Shown here: piece after piece, positions 41,243 through 51,820 of the stretch
Position numbering within the stretch: position 1 is the stretch's first letter
Layout of the letters: each line of letters opens with the position of its first letter
Assembly: GCF_003347515.1 (NCBI RefSeq)
Contig: NZ_QEII01000314.1
Coordinates: 62,001 to 126,000 of the forward strand
Reading direction: 5' to 3'
Source of the DNA: Rhodoferax ferrireducens
GTDB lineage: Bacteria; Pseudomonadota; Gammaproteobacteria; Burkholderiales; Burkholderiaceae_C
DNA: 64,000 nt
Notes under the pieces: generated by a model
What the model was told of the DNA's origin: nothing
The model's input: only the letters and a program-made list of their open reading frames with translations
Database searches by the model: none
Program-made: the position numbers and the translations under genes

Positions 41243-42088
41243 CTACTCGCCGAGAAACTGGAGAGCATGCTTCAGGAAGCGTTCCGGGTACTGGAACTGC
41301 GCCGCATGGCCGGCGTCCGGGTAGACGAATAGCTGCGCATTCGGGATGTTCTGGACCATGTACCAGGAATTGATGGTTGGAATCATCACGTCGTTCACGC
41401 CATTCAAGATAAATGTCGGCTGTTTGATGTCACGCAAGTGGGCGAAAGGCGCTTTGGAATCCAGCTTTGGCAGGTAATACATGTTGGCCTCGACTTGGGC
41501 CTGTATCACGGCGGGAGAGCTTGGCGGATCCTGGTCCACACGCTGGTGACGGCGCTTCCAGAAGTCGCGCCCGGCTTGCTGCGCAACTTCGGAACGACCA
41601 AAGAAAAGGAACAGGAAATCCTCGACCGTCGGAACCGGACGCGGTGCCGCTTCCAGCACGCCAGGATCTGAGTCGGGATTGCCACCCCGTGGCCCGGTTC
41701 CCAGCAGCATGAGCTGGCGAACCAGATCAGGGTGGCGCCGCGTCAGGTCCTGGGCCTGAAACCCACCCAGCGAGAAACCCAGGACATCAACCTTGGGAAT
41801 GCCAAGTGCTCGTATGACCGCTGCCGCGTCGTCTGCCATATGTTCAATGCGGGTGCGGGGTTGGCCGGACGAGGAGGCAACGCCACGACCGTTGAAGAGG
41901 ATCACCTCGCGCCCGGCCGCCAACCCGTCGGTCATCAGCGGGTCCCAGTGGTCCATGCCTCCACGGAAGTGCTGGAGGAAGAAGAGTGGCGGCTGGTCCG
42001 TCGCAGGGTTGCCCCAGCGGCGGTAGGCAAACTGGTCGCCATCGATTTCCACGAAGCGGGTAGGGGCGGTGAGGTGGGTGTGGTTCAT
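41243..42088 (-). CDS. alpha/beta hydrolase
   Basis: The 281-residue enzyme MNHTHLTAPTRFVEIDGDQF has oxyanion region FLQHFRGGMDHWDP, nucleophile elbow GFSLGGFQAQDLTRRHPD (Ser about 109), acid in LNGVNDVMIP and His in PDAGHAAQFQYPE. It is a paralogue of the hydrolase at 45051-45989 (both share DAAAVI/DDAITFI, GFS(L/M)GG and DAGH(A/G)xQFQ/IFQF features). The last gene of the minus-strand reductase cluster. Substrate not predictable; probably an esterase or C-C hydrolase. Confidence 0.9.
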   Translation of the reverse strand: MNHTHLTAPTRFVEIDGDQFAYRRWGNPATDQPPLFFLQHFRGGMDHWDPLMTDGLAAGREVILFNGRGVASSSGQPRTRIEHMADDAAAVIRALGIPKVDVLGFSLGGFQAQDLTRRHPDLVRQLMLLGTGPRGGNPDSDPGVLEAAPRPVPTVEDFLFLFFGRSEVAQQAGRDFWKRRHQRVDQDPPSSPAVIQAQVEANMYYLPKLDSKAPFAHLRDIKQPTFILNGVNDVMIPTINSWYMVQNIPNAQLFVYPDAGHAAQFQYPERFLKHALQFLGE

Positions 42089-42136: not shown

Positions 42137-42961
42137 TCAAGTCACGCTTCGCACCGGCAACACGAATCGCGGCTTGCCGAGCACTTGGGTCGCAACCCGT
42201 GATGCCAAGCGCCGCGTCAAGAAGCGCACGCCGAAGGTTGATAGCTTGTTGAACAGGCCGGGCACCACCGTGCGCTTGCCAGCCAGCATCGCGCGGATCG
42301 CGGCCTGCGCCACAAACTCTGGGCTTTTCGTCGACGCGTTCGCGATCCACGAGTAGTCGCCCCCGCCGGACGCGGCGTGGAACGCGGTCTCGGTGCCGCC
42401 AGGGCAGATGCAGGTCACCGACAGCGGCGCGCCACGGTGCTCGTCATGGAGGCCCTCGCTGAAGTTGCGCACGAATGCTTTCGACGCGGCGTACAGCGCC
42501 ATGTTCGGCACCGACTGGTACGCGCCGGTCGACGCGATGTTCAGCATGTGCGCGGGCGTGGTGCTGGCCTTGTGCGCGTCGACGAAGCAGCGCGCGAGCG
42601 CCACGAGCGAGGTCATGTTGAGTTGGACGAGCTCGGCGTCGCGCGCCCAGTCGACCTCGTCGAACCGGCGGAAGTAGCCGAACCCGGCGTTGTTGATCAG
42701 GATGTCGATCGGACCACCGGCGGTCGCGGCCGCCCACAGCGCACGCGCGGCATCGGGCTTGCCGAGATCTGCGGTGACGATCTCGACCTTGACGCCCTTG
42801 CAGGTCGCGGCGACCGCCTCCAGTGCGTCGCGGCGCCACGCCGTCAGCACGAGATCGATGCCCAGCGCCGCGAGCTCACGCGCAATTGCCGCACCAATGC
42901 CGCTGGATGCGCCGGTCACCAGTGCACGCTTGCCCATGTGGGCGGAGGTGTAGGTACTCAT
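42137..42961 (-). CDS. SDR-family NAD(P)-dependent oxidoreductase
   Basis: The 274-residue protein starts at MSTYTSAHMGKRALVTGASS and has the classical SDR motifs TGASSGIGAAI (cofactor, about 16-26), NNAG (about 90-93), catalytic Ser in NIASTGAYQSVPN, YAASK with Tyr/Lys (about 157-161) and a PGGTETAF cap. Cofactor residues after the Gly-rich loop (TAWRRDALE) suggest NADP. It belongs to the COG0300 short-chain group (DltE-like). The segment is more GC-rich than its neighbours, which may reflect separate acquisition. Confidence 0.92.
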   Translation of the reverse strand: MSTYTSAHMGKRALVTGASSGIGAAIARELAALGIDLVLTAWRRDALEAVAATCKGVKVEIVTADLGKPDAARALWAAATAGGPIDILINNAGFGYFRRFDEVDWARDAELVQLNMTSLVALARCFVDAHKASTTPAHMLNIASTGAYQSVPNMALYAASKAFVRNFSEGLHDEHRGAPLSVTCICPGGTETAFHAASGGGDYSWIANASTKSPEFVAQAAIRAMLAGKRTVVPGLFNKLSTFGVRFLTRRLASRVATQVLGKPRFVLPVRSVT

Positions 42962-44197: not shown

Positions 44198-44998
44198 TCA
44201 ACCGATCTTGTAACGAGGGGCCGGCGTTCCAGCTTGGGTACCCGCGAACAGTTCGGAGCGAGCTGCTTCGTACTTTTCCCACAGACTTGCATCGGCGACT
44301 GACGGCCAGGTGATCGTTTCGCCCTGGTCCAGGCCCGCCAGCGCCGCATCGACCATGTGCTCGGTTGTCATCAAGGTCTCCTTGTTGAGGGCCGCCAGTG
44401 GGACGCCCGACAGATCCCAGAGCTCGGTGGCTGTCGACGCTGGCAGGACCAGCTGAACCTTCACCCCGGTTTCAGCCAGTTCTTGCTGCAAGCCTCTGCT
44501 GTATTGCAATACGAAGGCCTTGGTACCGCTGTAGATGGCGCTGATCGGCAGCGAGTGGACGGCCAGGACGGAAGCGATGTTGATGATCAGGCCCTGGTTC
44601 CTCGCCACGAAGGCCGGCACCGCAGCTTGCGTCAGGCGCGTCAGTGCGGTGATGTTGAGGGCAATCTGGGACAGCACGTCGTTTGCAGACGTCTGGGCAA
44701 CAGGTGCCAGGCGCGCAACACCGGCATTGTTCACCAGGACTTGCACATCCGCATTGGTGGCCAGAATCGTCTCGATTCGCGCCACATCCTGATCTTTGGT
44801 CAGGTCGGCCACGATTGGATCCGCTTTGACGCCGTGCGCCTTTGAGACCTGCGTGCAGAGGGCTTCCAGGCGGTCAGCGCGCCGGGCGACAAGGATGAGA
44901 TCGTATCCACGCGCAGCGAGGCGATCCGCATAGACGGCGCCGATGCCGGAGGAAGCCCCGGTGATAAGGGCGAATTTTTTAGAACGAGGATTTGTCAT
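44198..44998 (-). CDS. SDR-family oxidoreductase
   Basis: The 266-residue protein MTNPRSKKFALITGASSGIG has TGASSGIG (about 13-20), ARRADRLEAL cofactor contact, NNAGVARLAP (about 91-100), catalytic Ser in NIASVLAVHSLP, YSGTKAF (Tyr/Lys about 155-159) and the PASTATELWD cap. NADP preference is likely from the ARRADR motif. It lies between the OYE gene (67 bases) and the hydrolase at 45051 (52 bases), on the same strand, so it is probably transcribed with them. Confidence 0.93.
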   Translation of the reverse strand: MTNPRSKKFALITGASSGIGAVYADRLAARGYDLILVARRADRLEALCTQVSKAHGVKADPIVADLTKDQDVARIETILATNADVQVLVNNAGVARLAPVAQTSANDVLSQIALNITALTRLTQAAVPAFVARNQGLIINIASVLAVHSLPISAIYSGTKAFVLQYSRGLQQELAETGVKVQLVLPASTATELWDLSGVPLAALNKETLMTTEHMVDAALAGLDQGETITWPSVADASLWEKYEAARSELFAGTQAGTPAPRYKIG

Positions 44999-45050: not shown

Positions 45051-45989
45051 CTATCGGGCAAGGAACTCCAGTGCGCTGGGCACGAAATCGGCATGGAACT
45101 GGAATATGCCGCCATGACCCGCATCGGGATAAACGATCAAGGTGCTGTTCGGAAGCCGCCGCGCCAAGTCGTGGGTGTTCGGCGTCGGGACCATGCGGTC
45201 AGCATCACCATTGACCACGAGTACGGGTTGCTTCACGACCGAGAGGTCCACGGGTTCTTTTTTGCCCCAGGCACGCAGCGCCTCCAACTGGGCTAGAAAT
45301 GCACTCACGGTGATTTCCTTGTCACGATTCTCAGAGCGCTCCTTCAGTCGATCAAGGAACGCCTTGCCAGCCTCGATGCCATTGGGTGTACGCGTGAAGA
45401 ACAGGTACTGCTTCGCATCCTGGCCCGTAAAGAAGCCCCTGAGCATGTCGTAGAAGGTCACACCCGACACTGAACTGATGCCCTCGCCACCCGCAGGTCC
45501 TGTTCCTGCGAGAACCATTTTTCGCACGAGTTGTGGCTCCTTCAAAACGATTTCCTGGGCAATCATGCCGCCCATGGAAAATCCCAAGAGGTCAACCTGC
45601 TTGAGCCCCATCGCCTGGATGAAAGTGATGGCGTCGTCGGCCATTTGCGCCATCGAATTCGACGGTGAACCACTCGACGCCCCGATGCCGCGGTTGTCAA
45701 ACGCGATGACGTGGTGCTTGGCGGCAATGCCATCCACGATGCGCGGATCCCAGTTGTCGAGTACGGCTGCCAGGTGGACGAGAAGCACCACCGGCGTGCC
45801 ACCATTGCTCTTCCCCAGCTCGCGGTACGCGAAGCTCACGCCGTCTGCCGTGATGGTTTGCGTTGCTACGGTTTTCCAAGAATTTTGGGTTACACCTTGG
45901 GGTATCGCTGCTGGCAACTCAGTGGCTGTCGCATAGAGGGATGCGGCCAACGTGAGTCCGAAGATGGCGAACTTGAGTAAATGCTTCAT
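45051..45989 (-). CDS. exported alpha/beta hydrolase
   Basis: The 312-residue protein MKHLLKFAIFGLTLAASLYA has a signal peptide cleaved near ATA (about 20-22), so it acts in the periplasm. Oxyanion region LLVHLAAVLDNWDPRIVDG, nucleophile elbow GFSMGGMIAQEIVLKEP (Ser about 139), acid in VNGDADRMVP and His in PDAGHGGIFQF are present. Its start overlaps the stop of the upstream SDR gene by 4 bases. Paralogue of the cytoplasmic hydrolase at 41243, which has no signal peptide. Confidence 0.92.
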   Translation of the reverse strand: MKHLLKFAIFGLTLAASLYATATELPAAIPQGVTQNSWKTVATQTITADGVSFAYRELGKSNGGTPVVLLVHLAAVLDNWDPRIVDGIAAKHHVIAFDNRGIGASSGSPSNSMAQMADDAITFIQAMGLKQVDLLGFSMGGMIAQEIVLKEPQLVRKMVLAGTGPAGGEGISSVSGVTFYDMLRGFFTGQDAKQYLFFTRTPNGIEAGKAFLDRLKERSENRDKEITVSAFLAQLEALRAWGKKEPVDLSVVKQPVLVVNGDADRMVPTPNTHDLARRLPNSTLIVYPDAGHGGIFQFHADFVPSALEFLAR

Positions 45990-46690
45990 GATGCCTGGGG
46001 CAGGTAGGCTGGACGTGGTGCCGTCAGACCTTGCCGGATCTGTTGGGTCAGCGCATCGGCCAGCACTTCATCCGCACCCGCTTCCAGTCCGTCCAGCGCG
46101 CGCTGGACGATTTCCTCGGCGCTGCTCTTCTGAACTTCGAAGCCCCGTGTGAGATCGGTATCGACATAGGCCATGTGCAAGCCCAGCACCTGGGTCTTCT
46201 GCCCCGCCAGCTCATGGCGCAGTGCATTCGTCAGCGACCAGGCTGCCGACTTGCTCGCCGAATAGGCGGCCAACTCGCCACCGTTGATCCACGATGCGAC
46301 CGACAACACATTGAGCAGCGCGCCACCGCCATTGGCTTTGAGCACGGGCGCAAAGGCCTTGCTCATGTTCAGCATGCCAAAGACGTTGGTCTCAAAAATG
46401 CGGCGTGTGACTTCATCACTGTCCGGTGCGAGAAACCCGCCGGGTTGGGCGATGCCCGCGTTGTTAATCACCAGCGTCACATCAGATGCTTGTTGAACGG
46501 CAGCAGCGACCTCTTCAGGTTTGGTGACGTCAAGCTGCAAAGCCTCGACACCCGGCAAGGTCACGGAGGCGGGATTGCGCGCGGCAGCGTAGACCTTGCG
46601 CGCGCCACGGGCGAGCAAAGCGCGCGCAAAGGCCAGACCGATTCCGCGGTTGGCGCCGGTGATAAGAACAACAGAATTTTCAATTTTCAT
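45986..46690 (-). CDS. SDR-family oxidoreductase
   Basis: The 234-residue protein MKIENSVVLITGANRGIGLA has TGANRGIG (about 11-18), a shorter segment after the second strand (AARNPASVTL), NNAGIAQPGG (about 77-86), Ser in NVLSVASWINGG and YSASKSA (Tyr/Lys). Probable operon head for the group 45986 down to 41243, because a palindromic site matching those at the TetR and acuI promoters lies 31 bases upstream (46721-46738). Confidence 0.92.
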   Translation of the reverse strand: MKIENSVVLITGANRGIGLAFARALLARGARKVYAAARNPASVTLPGVEALQLDVTKPEEVAAAVQQASDVTLVINNAGIAQPGGFLAPDSDEVTRRIFETNVFGMLNMSKAFAPVLKANGGGALLNVLSVASWINGGELAAYSASKSAAWSLTNALRHELAGQKTQVLGLHMAYVDTDLTRGFEVQKSSAEEIVQRALDGLEAGADEVLADALTQQIRQGLTAPRPAYLPQAS

Positions 46691-46720: not shown

Positions 46721-46738
46721 GCATGACGAACGTCATAC
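46721..46738 (-). promoter_or_regulatory. TetR-type operator in front of the SDR-led operon
   Basis: On the minus strand this is GTATGACGTTCGTCATGC, a palindrome with ATGACG/CGTCAT arms. It shares TATGA...C.TCATGC with the sites at 49101-49118 and 49740-49757. Its TATGAC could serve as a -10 element for the SDR gene starting at 46690, so binding would block transcription. Confidence 0.65.
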
Positions 46739-46774
46739 AAAAAGACGTGCCATTGCGTGAGCAATGGCGACGAT

Positions 46775-47776
46775 TCAGCGAACCTTGATCACAGCCTTGC
46801 CTTTGGCACGTCCGCTTTCGACGTAGGCCAATGCCTCGTTGGTGGATTCGAAGGAAAAGACCTTGTCGACGACCGGGCGTATGGCGCCCGACTCGATCAA
46901 GGGCGTGATCTGCCGCAACTGGCTCCCGCTGGCTTTCATGAACAGGAAGGAGAAGCCGACATGGAGGCGCTTCGCTTTTCTGCGGGTTCCAAAACTCAGA
47001 GCGCGCATCACCTGTTTCACAAACCAGGGGGCCTTGATTTCTTCAGCAAACGCGGGATCAGGGGGGCCAGAGATGGAGATGAGTTTTCCGCCGGGTTTGA
47101 GCACATTGAGAGACTTCCCTAGCGTTTTGCCATCCTGGCTGTTCAGGACCACGTCGTAGTCGCGCAAGACATCCTCAAAGTCCTGCTTCTTGTAGTCGAT
47201 GACGACGTCCGCGCCCAGACTCTTCACGAGCGCGACATTGGTCGTGCTTGTCGTCGTGGCGACGGTCGCGCCCAGATGCTTGGCCAACTGGATGGCAAAA
47301 GTGCCGACACCACCGGAGCCGGCCTGGATGAAGACCTTCTGCCCCTTCTTTAGCTTGGCCCTCTCGACCAGCGCCTGCCAAACCGTCAAAGCCACCAGGG
47401 GAATGGAAGCGGCTTCTTCCATCGTGAGATTCTTGGGCTTGAGCGCCAAGGAGCCTTCTTTGACGGGGACGAATTCCGCGAACGTGCCGATCCGAAAATC
47501 ATCCGGCCGCGCATAAACCTCATCGCCTGGTCTGAACTGCCGCACGCGCGGGCCGACCTTGACGACCACCCCTGCCACATCGTGACCCAAGGCGGTGGGC
47601 AGTTGATAGGGCAGGATGAGCTTGAACTCTCCGCTCCGGATCTTGGTGTCCAGCAGGTTCACGCCTGCGGCGTGGACCTGGACCAGGACTTCGTCATCGC
47701 GCAGCTCCGGCGTCGGCATCTCTGCCAAGCGCAACGCGCGCTTTTTCCCATATCTCTCAAGAATAAATGCTTTCAT
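46775..47776 (-). CDS. NADP-dependent MDR-family oxidoreductase (quinone oxidoreductase-like)
   Basis: The 333-residue protein MKAFILERYGKKRALRLAEM is a zinc-free medium-chain reductase: GHDVAGVVVKVGPRVRQFRPGD, the QAGSGGVGTFAIQLAKHLGA nucleotide motif (about 153-172), VVLNSQDGKTLGKSLNVLKP and GRAKGKAVIKV at the end. Members reduce quinones or alkenals with NADPH. ATG at 47776 is preferred over an upstream extension. The gap to the acuI-like gene is 132 bases with no feature I can identify. Confidence 0.92.
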   Translation of the reverse strand: MKAFILERYGKKRALRLAEMPTPELRDDEVLVQVHAAGVNLLDTKIRSGEFKLILPYQLPTALGHDVAGVVVKVGPRVRQFRPGDEVYARPDDFRIGTFAEFVPVKEGSLALKPKNLTMEEAASIPLVALTVWQALVERAKLKKGQKVFIQAGSGGVGTFAIQLAKHLGATVATTTSTTNVALVKSLGADVVIDYKKQDFEDVLRDYDVVLNSQDGKTLGKSLNVLKPGGKLISISGPPDPAFAEEIKAPWFVKQVMRALSFGTRRKAKRLHVGFSFLFMKASGSQLRQITPLIESGAIRPVVDKVFSFESTNEALAYVESGRAKGKAVIKVR

Positions 47777-47908
47777 GTTTTTTTCCTTATGTAAGTGCGA
47801 CTGCAAGAACGCCATGGCGAGCGCGATCTCGACGGCAACGGCCACCAAGACGTCGGGCCCGACAAATAGTGCCCAGAATGCGGTTGATGGGGAGGTGTCG
47901 CGGCATAT

Positions 47909-48895
47909 TCATGCGTTGACGTCAACGACGGTGCGGCCCTGGACTTGTCCGGCGAACAATCGCTCGACGATCGCGGGCACGTCGGCCAGGGCCACCACCT
48001 GAGTCGTTCGCGCGAGCTTGCCCAGATCGAGGTCCCGCGCCAGTCGTGACCAAGCCTCGATGCGCACTTGTTGGAGCGCATTGACCGAATCGATGCCGGC
48101 CAGCGTTACGTTGCGCAGGATGAAAGGCAGCACCGAGGCCGGAAGATCCATGCCCTGGGCCAGGCCGCAAGCGGTGACCACGCCGCGGTACTTGGTCTGT
48201 GCCAATACATTGGCCAGCGTGTGGCTACCCACCGAGTCGACGGCGCCGGCCCATCTTTCAGCCGCGATCGGCGCGCCCGGCCCCGAGAGGGTCCGGCGAT
48301 CCATGATCTCGGCGGCCCCCAGGCTGCGCAGATACTCGCTTTCCTCAAGTCGCCCTGTGGACGCGACGACGCGGTAGCCCAGACCCGACAGGAGGGCGAT
48401 GGCGATGGAGCCGACGCCGCCATTGGCACCCGTCACGAGAATGTCTCCGTGCTGGGGTGTGAGCCCGCCATGCTCGAGCGCCAGCACCGACAGCATCGCC
48501 GTGTAGCCCGCCGTCCCGATGGCCATCGCGTCCTTGGTGGACAGGGCCGCTGGGAGTTTGACCAGCCACTCGCCTTTCACGCGCGCCCGCTGCGCATAGC
48601 CGCCGTGGTGGGTTTGGCTCAAGCCCCAGCCATTGGCGACGACGCGGTCGCCCGCCGCGATGCCGGGGTATGAGGAGGTCTTGACCGTGCCGGCGAAGTC
48701 GATGCCGGCAATCAGGGGGAACTGGCGAATCACCTCGGCACGACCGGTGATGGCCACGGCGTCCTTGTAATTCACGGTGGAGTAATCGACGTCGACCACG
48801 ACGTCTCCGGGCATGAGGTCTTGTTCGCTCAGCGAGACCACGCTGGTCGTAATCTTGTCACCCGTCTTGCTTGCGAGCAGTGCTTGGAATGTCAT
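47909..48895 (-). CDS. acuI: acrylyl-CoA reductase AcuI/YhdH-family MDR oxidoreductase
   Basis: The 328-residue protein MTFQALLASKTGDKITTSVV is a YhdH/AcuI-type medium-chain reductase with the family motif DVDYSTVNYKDAVAITGRAE, GIDFAGTV, DRVVANGWGLSQTHHGGYAQ, the GANGGVGSIAIALLSGLGY nucleotide loop (about 154-172) and the CGLAQGMDLPASVLPFILRN segment. AcuI reduces acryloyl-CoA to propionyl-CoA with NADPH and lowers acrylate toxicity. It is the first gene after TetR; the 260-base gap between them holds an operator at 49101-49118. Confidence 0.93.
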   Translation of the reverse strand: MTFQALLASKTGDKITTSVVSLSEQDLMPGDVVVDVDYSTVNYKDAVAITGRAEVIRQFPLIAGIDFAGTVKTSSYPGIAAGDRVVANGWGLSQTHHGGYAQRARVKGEWLVKLPAALSTKDAMAIGTAGYTAMLSVLALEHGGLTPQHGDILVTGANGGVGSIAIALLSGLGYRVVASTGRLEESEYLRSLGAAEIMDRRTLSGPGAPIAAERWAGAVDSVGSHTLANVLAQTKYRGVVTACGLAQGMDLPASVLPFILRNVTLAGIDSVNALQQVRIEAWSRLARDLDLGKLARTTQVVALADVPAIVERLFAGQVQGRTVVDVNA

Positions 48896-49100
48896 CGTTT
48901 TCTTTCAAATAGAGTGTTATCAAAGGCCAAAAGCGGCATGCGAAACGGCTAGCCGCCTAGGCTTCGAGTCGAAGGTCTTTCCGAACCCCGGCATCCAGCA
49001 CGCTGGCGGGCGCAAACCTGCGCAGCAGGCGCATGCGGTTGGCCATCAGGTGCACGGCCCAACAAAAGGGTTCGCCGGGGGGGGGCGGTATGTTTATGTC

Positions 49101-49118
49101 GCATGATGATTATCATAT
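49101..49118 (-). promoter_or_regulatory. TetR-type operator between tetR and acuI
   Basis: Minus-strand reading ATATGATAATCATCATGC, with ATGAT/ATCAT arms and a 4-base centre. 15 of 18 bases are identical to the site over the tetR start (49740-49757). It lies 206 bases before the acuI start and includes a possible -10 (TATGAT). Confidence 0.7.
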
Positions 49119-49155
49119 TTATGGGTGAGCGAAAAGGCAGTGAGTCTCCGTGGAT

Positions 49156-49743
49156 TCAGGCGGGAGGCAGGTGCTTCAATGCGGCCGCGCACAAGCTGTC
49201 CGACAGCGCGGGGTCGTCGACCACTCGGGCCAACAGCAATGTGCCCACCATGGTGGAAACGGTCACGAGGGCGCGTTCGTGGGCCCCGGGCTGCCCCCAG
49301 TCAGGCGACTGACGGGCGACAAGATCGATCATTTCCTTGATGTGCCGGGTGGTCACGCGGCGGACTTCGGGCGCCTGGCGCGGTGTCTCCGAGCCCAGTG
49401 CGGCCAGGGGACATCCCATTTCAATCTGCACCAGATGCTCTGGCGAGAGGTAGGCGCGAAGCATGGAGGCCAAAGCCTGTCCGGGAGGCACGCTGGCAAC
49501 AACCCCCGCCACGACGGCGGCTGACTCCGCGCACGCCCGGCCCGCGGCTTCCGCCAGCATGGCCTCGCGCGATGCGAAGTGGGCATAGAAGGCGCCATGG
49601 GTCAGGCCGGCCTCCTTCATGATGTCGGCGACGCCGGTGCCGTCGTAGCCGCTGCGCCGGATCGCCCGCGCCGCGGCGGATACGATGCGCTCGTGGGAGG
49701 CTTCCTTGGCTGCTGTTCTGACGTTGTGCTTTGAATTTCGCAT
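49156..49743 (-). CDS. TetR/AcrR-family transcriptional regulator
   Basis: The 195-residue protein starts MRNSKHNVRTAAKEASHERI with helix-turn-helix TGVADIMKEAGLTHGAFYAH (about 41-60) and a TetR C-terminal ligand domain (EMGCPLAALGSETPR has the single Cys). A Cys in the ligand domain of such reductase-linked TetRs can sense electrophiles, as in NemR; this is inference. Start ATG at 49743; 49755 and 49821 are in frame. The promoter's -10-like TATGAT ends about 8 bases from the ATG, so the mRNA may be nearly leaderless, and the operator 49740-49757 covers the start. Confidence 0.9.
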   Translation of the reverse strand: MRNSKHNVRTAAKEASHERIVSAAARAIRRSGYDGTGVADIMKEAGLTHGAFYAHFASREAMLAEAAGRACAESAAVVAGVVASVPPGQALASMLRAYLSPEHLVQIEMGCPLAALGSETPRQAPEVRRVTTRHIKEMIDLVARQSPDWGQPGAHERALVTVSTMVGTLLLARVVDDPALSDSLCAAALKHLPPA

Positions 49744-49757
49744 GATGCATATCATAC
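49740..49757 (-). promoter_or_regulatory. TetR-type operator over the tetR start codon
   Basis: Minus-strand reading GTATGATATGCATCATGC, with ATGAT/ATCAT arms. It overlaps the ATG at 49741-49743 and the TATGAT -10 candidate, as expected for autorepression. Shares TATGA-N4-C-N-TCATGC with the sites at 49101 and 46721. Confidence 0.7.
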
Positions 49758-49844: not shown

Positions 49845-49945
49845 ATTCCATTTCTAAATCATCCGTGTCGTTGTTGCTTCGCCTTGTCGTGCTACAGCAC
49901 TGCCTGCGGCTTCGCGCCTAGACACGAATGATTTGGAAACGGAAT
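49845..49945. repeat. 101-base imperfect palindrome between tetR and speE
   Basis: Arms 49845-49869 (ATTCCATTTCTAAATC...) and 49921-49945 pair over 22 of 25 bases. The 51-base loop contains a smaller hairpin (GTGCTACAGCAC) and two GCTTCGC units. The right arm touches the speE stop codon. It fits a mini-transposable or REP-like element, possibly serving as the speE terminator; sequences like it recur in Comamonadaceae as I remember them. Confidence 0.75.
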
Positions 49946-51719: not shown

Positions 51720-51749
51720 GATGCGTTCCTTTAAAAATTCAAATCGTCG

Positions 51750-51810
51750 TCATCGCGAGCGCAGCGTGGCAATCCAGGCTGCATGGATTGCCACGCTGCG
51801 CTCGCAATGA
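51750..51810. repeat. 61-base near-perfect palindrome (REP-like) between DUF350 and DUF4178 genes
   Basis: Arms 51750-51776 and 51784-51810 pair over 26 of 27 bases around a 7-base loop. The arm contains GCGAGCGCAGCGTGGCAATC, close to a palindrome type widely scattered in Proteobacteria. As it lies inside a likely operon, it may attenuate expression or stabilise the upstream mRNA. Confidence 0.8.
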
Positions 51811-51820
51811 CAGAACAGTG

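What the first reader, a model, noticed from the sequence alone, without database searches (positions are those of the whole stretch)
46721..49757. A TetR regulon defined by three near-identical palindromes
The sites 49740-49757 (over tetR start), 49101-49118 (before acuI) and 46721-46738 (before an SDR gene) all read TATGA(T/C)NNNC(A/G)TCATGC toward the gene they precede. Each overlaps a possible -10 element. The third differs in the arms but keeps perfect symmetry. I saw no matching site before the other genes of the cluster. This predicts at least three regulated promoters for reductases of the OYE, SDR and MDR families.
Basis: partly seen in the sequence, partly recalled or inferred. Interest (0 to 1): 0.65.

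Follow-up and report, generated by a model that had tools for sequence, protein, structure and literature searches.

The report
TetR operators guarding a reductase cluster
Three copies of one short DNA palindrome look like the switches by which a repressor gene controls itself and a neighbouring set of detoxification-type enzymes, and the same palindrome recurs beside the same genes in many related bacteria, so this is a real but fairly ordinary regulatory circuit whose trigger chemical is still unknown.

Summary
The three sites match the stated pattern exactly and are the three best matches in the window to a matrix built from relatives. In the 6.87-Mb genome RYATGAYNNNNRTCATRY has 7 places: these three, two beside a paralogous tetR, two elsewhere. 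In 80 related tetR loci the palindrome lies at the tetR start in 80 (3 with one mismatch) and just after tetR in 77 (14 with one mismatch). Seeded only with the SDR protein, 33 of 40 homologues have it within 150 nt upstream, 24 exactly. Reading the sites as operators of the adjacent TetR is well supported; binding was not measured. Refinements: site A contains the tetR start codon; site B lies 205 nt before acuI because a first SDR gene was deleted, leaving its 3' end; site C probably heads a long unit including the OYE gene, which has no site of its own. The regulator is LmrA/YxaF-like. Its one invariant cysteine aligns with NemR Cys106, but NemR's electrophile-sensing Cys21 and Cys116 have no counterpart, so an electrophile inducer is only a lead. 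New member of a known kind.

The parts
49740..49757 (-). Operator A, GTATGATATGCATCATGC; contains an in-frame tetR ATG at 49743-49741 and a TATGAT hexamer 7 nt before it
   Evidence: same place in 80 of 80 related loci, 77 exact and 3 with one mismatch
49101..49118 (-). Operator B, ATATGATAATCATCATGC; 37 nt after the tetR stop codon, 205 nt before acuI
   Evidence: second site just after tetR in 77 of 80 related loci, 63 exact and 14 with one mismatch
46721..46738 (-). Operator C, GTATGACGTTCGTCATGC; 30 nt before the SDR_A start, in the TATGAC/GTCAT form
   Evidence: a site in the matching offset window in 14 of 80 loci, 10 of them with both changes of this form; upstream of 33 of 40 SDR_A homologues
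49156..49743 (-). tetR, 195 aa, TetR_N plus LmrA/YxaF-like C-terminal domain
   Evidence: Pfam PF00440 and PF21993; AlphaFold2 model mean pLDDT 86.4
48896..49100 (-). Leader between operator B and acuI; holds the 3' end (last 29 codons or so) of a deleted SDR gene
   Evidence: blastn to L058: site region and a 151-nt stretch ending at acuI (85% identity) with 751 nt between them in L058 and 54 nt in the window; the remnant reads as the C-terminus of the L058 SDR ORF
47909..48895 (-). acuI, acrylyl-CoA reductase (NADPH) family
   Evidence: NF051456, 471.9 bits against a cut-off of 440
46775..47776 (-). MDR2, quinone-reductase-like MDR oxidoreductase; 132 nt after acuI, unit membership inferred
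   Evidence: PF13602, PF08240; a homologue of 50% identity or more in the cluster of 61 of 68 relatives with 7 kb or more of sequence
46749..46768 (-). Terminator-like hairpin with T-run directly before operator C
   Evidence: in a scan whose total (6) does not exceed its shuffles (mean 7.7)
45986..46690 (-). SDR_A, short-chain dehydrogenase
   Evidence: NF006117, 431.1 bits against a cut-off of 299
45051..45989 (-). ABH_A, alpha/beta hydrolase
   Evidence: PF00561; overlaps SDR_A by 4 nt
44198..44998 (-). SDR_B
   Evidence: PF00106
43054..44130 (-). OYE, NemA-like; no operator of its own
   Evidence: PF00724; 40% identical to E. coli NemA; best upstream score -17 bits
42137..42961 (-). SDR_C (ATG at 42961; searches used a reading 6 nt longer)
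   Evidence: PF00106; start codon checked
41243..42088 (-). ABH_B, alpha/beta hydrolase
   Evidence: PF00561
40807..41196 (-). Small protein, 129 aa, no Pfam or NCBIfam match at E 0.001; possible end of the unit
   Evidence: homologue in the cluster of 4 of 68 relatives

Best explanation
The three palindromes are operators of the adjacent TetR-family repressor. A dimer binds ATGAY-N4-RTCAT at (A) its own promoter and start codon, so it limits its own synthesis, (B) the promoter of the acuI-MDR2 unit and (C) the promoter of a long unit SDR_A-ABH_A-SDR_B-OYE-SDR_C-ABH_B-small ORF. When an inducer is sensed the repressor leaves and the reductases are made. The most likely inducer class is a reactive electrophile or oxidant (enone, enal, quinone) that the reductases deal with, possibly sensed at Cys111. 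Shown here: the sites, their rarity, their conservation in sequence, spacing and position, and the gene content. Inferred: binding, repression, unit boundaries, inducer. The confidence given is for the operator-repressor core; for the electrophile inducer I would give somewhat below even odds.
For: Rarity: 7 places in 6.87 Mb, 5 beside tetR genes of this family; reversed-pattern control 1 match per strand. Conservation: 153 strict sites in 1.485 Mb of 80 related loci against a mean of 0.3 for 200 scrambled palindromes (largest 20); of spacers 0-11 nt only 4 gives more than one match. The spacer varies while the arms hardly do. SDR-seeded test: 24 of 40 exact, 33 of 40 with at most one mismatch within 150 nt; scrambled patterns mean 0.1 and 0.2, largest 19 and 29. 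Paralogues: the tetR at C324 (49%) is flanked by two identical sites of the same type; the tetR at C284 (44%) by two sites with a shared change, ATATGATNNNNRTAATAT, the only two of that pattern in the genome. Class-wide scan with a tight operator: 2 of 369 genomes, and in both the place adjoins a TetR with the helix AGLTHGGFYAHF.
Against: No binding or expression data. Part of the right arm of site A is the start codon and is conserved for coding as well. The 80 loci are related and are the best of at least 411; the SDR-seeded set shares some contigs with them. Seven of 40 SDR homologues lack the site within 150 nt (L127, L129, L130, L132, L133, L135, L162), and 3 of 80 loci lack site B (L040, L048, L049). 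Of 21 relatives (own genome left out) that hold the looser motif, 15 have no close tetR orthologue, so isolated copies occur. In the class-wide scan the reversed control also hit 2 of 369 genomes, so there the context, not the count, is the evidence. The -35 elements are weak and the promoter scan found none at the sites. For the inducer: Cys111 lies in a G-C motif shared with 2fd5, 3qbm and 3dpj; NemR's Lys175 is Arg173 here, and NemR Cys21 and Cys116, reported as essential for electrophiles, are Ile28 and Pro121.
Confidence: 0.87

Rival explanations
1. The palindromes are bound by several paralogous TetRs of the same genome, so the adjacent TetR is not the only controller.
For: The paralogue at C324 is flanked by sites of the same consensus, and its recognition helix differs little (AGLTHGAFYAHF against AGLTHGGFYAHF).
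Against: The palindrome accompanies the adjacent tetR in 80 of 80 loci (3 with one mismatch); the tetR at C284 has its own variant.
Confidence: 0.2
2. The sites are promoter or start-codon sequence (TATGAT plus ATG) that happens to look symmetric, with no dedicated repressor.
For: TATGAT resembles a -10 hexamer, and site A includes an in-frame ATG in 80 of 80 loci.
Against: The full two-arm palindrome also occurs at B and C, which hold no start codon of the next gene; spacer lengths 0-3 and 5-11 give at most 1 match each; only 7 places in 6.87 Mb.
Confidence: 0.03
3. The TetR acts as an activator, or controls only itself and unit B; unit C is driven otherwise in this strain.
For: A strict site directly before a downstream SDR_A was seen in 10 of the 80 tetR-seeded loci, 14 with a looser pattern in a fixed offset window.
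Against: In the SDR-seeded set 33 of 40 have it directly before SDR_A, and overlap with a -10-like hexamer suits repression.
Confidence: 0.1

Closest known systems
E. coli NemR / nemRA-gloA
   Same: TetR repressor with an Old Yellow Enzyme gene nearby; window OYE 40% identical to NemA; Cys111 aligns with NemR Cys106; NemR is rank 4 of the PDB fold hits and matched by the profile
   Different: 20% identity in the alignment; no similar operator within 160 nt of nemR (best has 4 mismatches); Lys175 is Arg, Cys21 and Cys116 are Ile and Pro; the enzyme set is larger
LmrA/YxaF (B. subtilis) subfamily of TetR, PF21993
   Same: C-terminal domain match just above the curated cut-off (27.6 against 27); YxaF structure 1sgm matched by the profile
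   Different: YxaF has GIP instead of GCP at the cysteine; YxaF's operator was not compared here
AcuR (acrylate utilization regulator)
   Same: TetR family; here too an acuI gene is nearby
   Different: NF051457 score 23.6 against a cut-off of 247; an acuI homologue of 50% identity or more in only 5 of 68 relatives' clusters
P. aeruginosa TetR of structure 2fd5
   Same: Best match by sequence profile and by fold; shares GCPL
   Different: Function and operator not found: one search for the tag PA3133 listed six papers, none of them, by title and abstract start, about it (that this tag belongs to 2fd5 is recalled)

Membership tests
TetR family, LmrA/YxaF-like subfamily | TetR_N DNA-binding domain | tested here: met
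   PF00440, 49.7 bits against 24
TetR family, LmrA/YxaF-like subfamily | PF21993 C-terminal domain | tested here: met
   27.6 bits against 27, barely
TetR family, LmrA/YxaF-like subfamily | All-helical TetR fold | tested here: met
   predicted model and PDB hits
Autoregulated local TetR regulon | The same palindrome at the regulator's own gene and at neighbouring genes | tested here: met
Autoregulated local TetR regulon | Regulator binds the operator and is released by a ligand | not testable with these tools
   needs a binding assay
NemR | Cys106 (response to reactive chlorine) | tested here: met
   Cys111 aligned; present in 81 of 81 rows, window included
NemR | Lys175, reported partner of Cys106 | tested here: not met
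   Arg173
NemR | Cys21 and Cys116 (response to electrophiles) | tested here: not met
   Ile28 and Pro121 in the alignment
NemR | Orthology and shared operator | tested here: not met
   20% identity; this palindrome is absent at nemR
AcuR | NF051457 above cut-off | tested here: not met
   23.6 against 247 bits

The most novel reading that the evidence does not exclude
A thiol switch built on a NemR-like cysteine in the LmrA/YxaF branch governs an expandable reductase island across Burkholderiales; in this genome three paralogous TetR-SDR modules coexist, two sharing one operator (cross-talk) and one with a shifted operator, giving a natural series for repressor-operator co-evolution and for electrophile or oxidant sensing. 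(Odds lowered from 0.3 on checking: NemR's electrophile cysteines have no counterpart here.)
Probability: 0.25. Interest if true: 0.55.

Novelty: new member of a known kind. Interest (0 to 1): 0.4.

Why it matters
It gives a precise predicted operator and target set to a TetR subfamily that recurs across Burkholderiales, so the genes can be named and a regulated promoter tested. The paralogues with matched and shifted operators make repressor-operator co-evolution testable in one strain. If the inducer is an electrophile or oxidant, it is another solution to the problem NemR solves.

Tried and rejected
Considered and rejected: chance palindromes; AcuR orthology; NemR orthology; a sigma-54 promoter at site C (a TGGCAC is there but the partner element does not fit; read by eye, not computed). 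Of the many one-mismatch places in the genome (one search lists only the first places), five stretches were looked at (L114-L118) and gave no match to this tetR; the exact place on C300 lies inside an ORF; the exact place on C313 lies at the start of what looks like a Crp-type regulator gene (the label is by eye, no family search) and stays unexplained. One place in G058 (L122) was fetched and lies beside no gene of the cluster.

Literature: nine searches listed no paper that, by title and abstract start, deals with this regulon or operator; one search listed 12 of 44 papers, one search found three unrelated papers, none. Only passages of three papers were seen. The library lacks most subscription journals, so absence there is weak evidence.
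Full report
THE SITES. On the minus strand the three sites read GTATGATATGCATCATGC (A, 49757-49740), ATATGATAATCATCATGC (B, 49118-49101) and GTATGACGTTCGTCATGC (C, 46738-46721). A weight matrix made from 85 distinct sites of relatives, the window left out, scores them 29.8 (B), 26.8 (A) and 25.3 (C) bits; the next place scores 7.9, and the 300 nt before eight other genes of the cluster reach at most -8.

GENOME FREQUENCY. In the 6.87-Mb genome RYATGAYNNNNRTCATRY has 7 places: A, B, C; two identical sites flanking a paralogous tetR on C324; one inside an ORF on C300; and one on C313 at the start of a regulator-like gene. The reversed control has one match per strand. Of 60 genomes searched with RTATGAYNNNNRTCATRY (own included), 22 have a match: the own genome, the six with a close tetR orthologue (67% identity or more), and 15 others whose places were not examined. 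In the six, the site after tetR is exact in 6, the site at its start in 5 and a site before SDR_A in 4.

CONSERVATION AT TETR. The scan for relatives kept the best 80 of at least 411 loci, all with titles pointing to Burkholderiales or left at a higher rank. At the tetR start the palindrome is exact in 77 and has one mismatch in 3 of 80; just after tetR it is exact in 63 and has one mismatch in 14 of 80, and is lacking in L040, L048 and L049. The 80 loci (1.485 Mb) hold 153 strict sites; 200 scrambled palindromes of the same arm composition average 0.3, largest 20 (the high ones were not inspected; presumably near-copies of the real pattern), and spacers other than 4 nt give 0 or 1. Arms hardly vary while the spacer does, which is what dimer binding predicts. 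At the place of site C, 14 of 80 loci have a site; 13 have the TATGAC left arm and 10 also the GTCAT right arm, as in the window; the other four are mixed.

A SECOND SEED. Because those loci were chosen by tetR, I repeated the test from the SDR_A protein alone. At E up to 1e-80, 42 of 200 genomes of the family, own included, had a homologue. I fetched the upstream DNA of 40; left out were the own genome and G010, fetched before. In 150 nt before the SDR start, 24 of 40 have the exact palindrome and 33 of 40 have it with at most one mismatch; scrambled patterns average 0.1 and 0.2, with largest values 19 and 29. Of the seven without the site, L129, L130, L132 and L133 have the palindrome at a tetR farther upstream; L127 and L135 have a more distant, divergently placed tetR (33-34%) and, by eye, keep the core ATGAYNNNNRTCAT with other outer bases; L162 has nothing. 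In 29 of the 40 the regulator belongs to a second tetR clade (42-53% identical) placed directly before SDR_A; 22 of these 29 also have an exact site at the tetR start, such as ATATGACGATCATCATAT.

PARALOGUES. In the window's genome the tetR on C324 (49%) is followed by an SDR_A homologue (63%), with a site before each; the tetR on C284 (44%) is followed by another (58%), with two sites of the changed form ATATGATNNNNRTAATAT, the only two such places in the genome. Operator and regulator thus seem to change together. A class-wide scan for ATATGAYGNNCRTCATAT hit 2 of 369 genomes; its reversed control also hit 2, so the count proves nothing. The context does: one is the tetR-SDR_A pair of G173, the other, in a different family, has two sites at the start of a TetR with the helix AGLTHGGFYAHF (L166).

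ANATOMY OF THE CONTROL. Site A contains an in-frame ATG in 80 of 80 loci; an in-frame stop lies within 60 nt upstream in 32, and a Shine-Dalgarno-like 4-mer precedes the ATG in 2 of 80. With TATGAT 7 nt before the ATG, a leaderless tetR mRNA is likely (inference). The -35 matches are weak, and the promoter scanner found nothing at the sites. Site B lies 37 nt after the tetR stop. The 205 nt between B and acuI hold a scar: the window matches L058 at the site and again over a 151-nt stretch up to the acuI start, with 751 nt between these in L058 and 54 nt in the window. In L058 that stretch holds a 274-codon SDR reading frame ending ...RLLRRFAPASVLDAGVRKDLRLDA; the window keeps ...RLLRRFAPASVLDAGVRKDLRLEA and a stop. 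Site C follows a terminator-like hairpin (such hairpins are no more frequent there than in shuffles). Genes from SDR_A to the 129-aa ORF run in one direction with gaps of -4 to 92 nt, so OYE is probably read from site C (inference); acuI and MDR2 are 132 nt apart.

WHAT IT SENSES. The TetR is a TetR_N / LmrA-YxaF-type protein, not AcuR. In 81 rows (80 relatives plus the window) Cys111 is the only invariant cysteine, and both paralogues keep it. In an alignment with NemR of E. coli K-12 it pairs with Cys106; Arg173 pairs with Lys175, Ile28 with Cys21 and Pro121 with Cys116. A review says that Cys106 is critical for NemR's response to hypochlorous acid, that a Cys106-Lys175 bond has been reported, and that Cys21 and Cys116 were essential for electrophiles (PMC5297802, passages). 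So the one shared cysteine is the chlorine-type one and the two electrophile ones are missing: this speaks partly against a NemR-like electrophile switch. A loose regular expression read Cys at this place in 30 of 34 TetRs of the SDR-seeded loci (the other four were not checked). The enzymes (OYE, MDR, SDR, acrylyl-CoA reductase) fit reduction of enones, enals and quinones. An electrophile or oxidant response stays the best guess, at somewhat below even odds.

AGAINST KNOWN WORK. Local TetR control of neighbouring enzyme genes is a well-known kind (PMC3511530, passages: in streptomycetes most TetR regulators less than 200 bp from a divergent neighbour regulate it; here the order is co-directional). 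A comparative study of Proteobacteria lists the TetR groups FabR, FadP, LiuQ, PsrA and RutR in the passages seen (PMC5343134). Nine literature searches listed nothing that looked like this operator or regulon.

VERDICT. Observation and interpretation are both sound; the kind is known, I found no description of this regulon in the library searched, and the inducer is open.

Noticed in passing
48896-49100: Scar of a deleted SDR gene: only its 3' end remains between operator B and acuI; L058, for one, keeps the whole gene.
   Followed up: yes
L111 3108-4527 and L112 3416-4859 (own genome C324 and C284): Two further tetR-SDR modules with their own flanking palindromes, one of the same type and one of a shifted type.
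   Followed up: partly
L119 2921-2938 (own genome C313:7420-7437): A matching palindrome at the start of what looks like a Crp-type regulator gene; owner unknown.
   Followed up: partly
49845-49945: Imperfect inverted repeat with arms of about 25 bp between tetR and the next gene, seen by eye.
   Followed up: no
51745-51812: Long near-perfect hairpin between genes, looks like a dispersed repeat, seen by eye.
   Followed up: no
upstream of the site-B and site-C equivalents in L031-L110: A T-rich block followed by a C/G-rich stretch is conserved just before the operators; may be terminators of the preceding genes, not resolved.
   Followed up: partly
L055 and L058: Second tetR copies (69% and 67%) about 5-6 kb upstream, each followed by its own palindrome, i.e. 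neighbouring duplicated islands.
   Followed up: no
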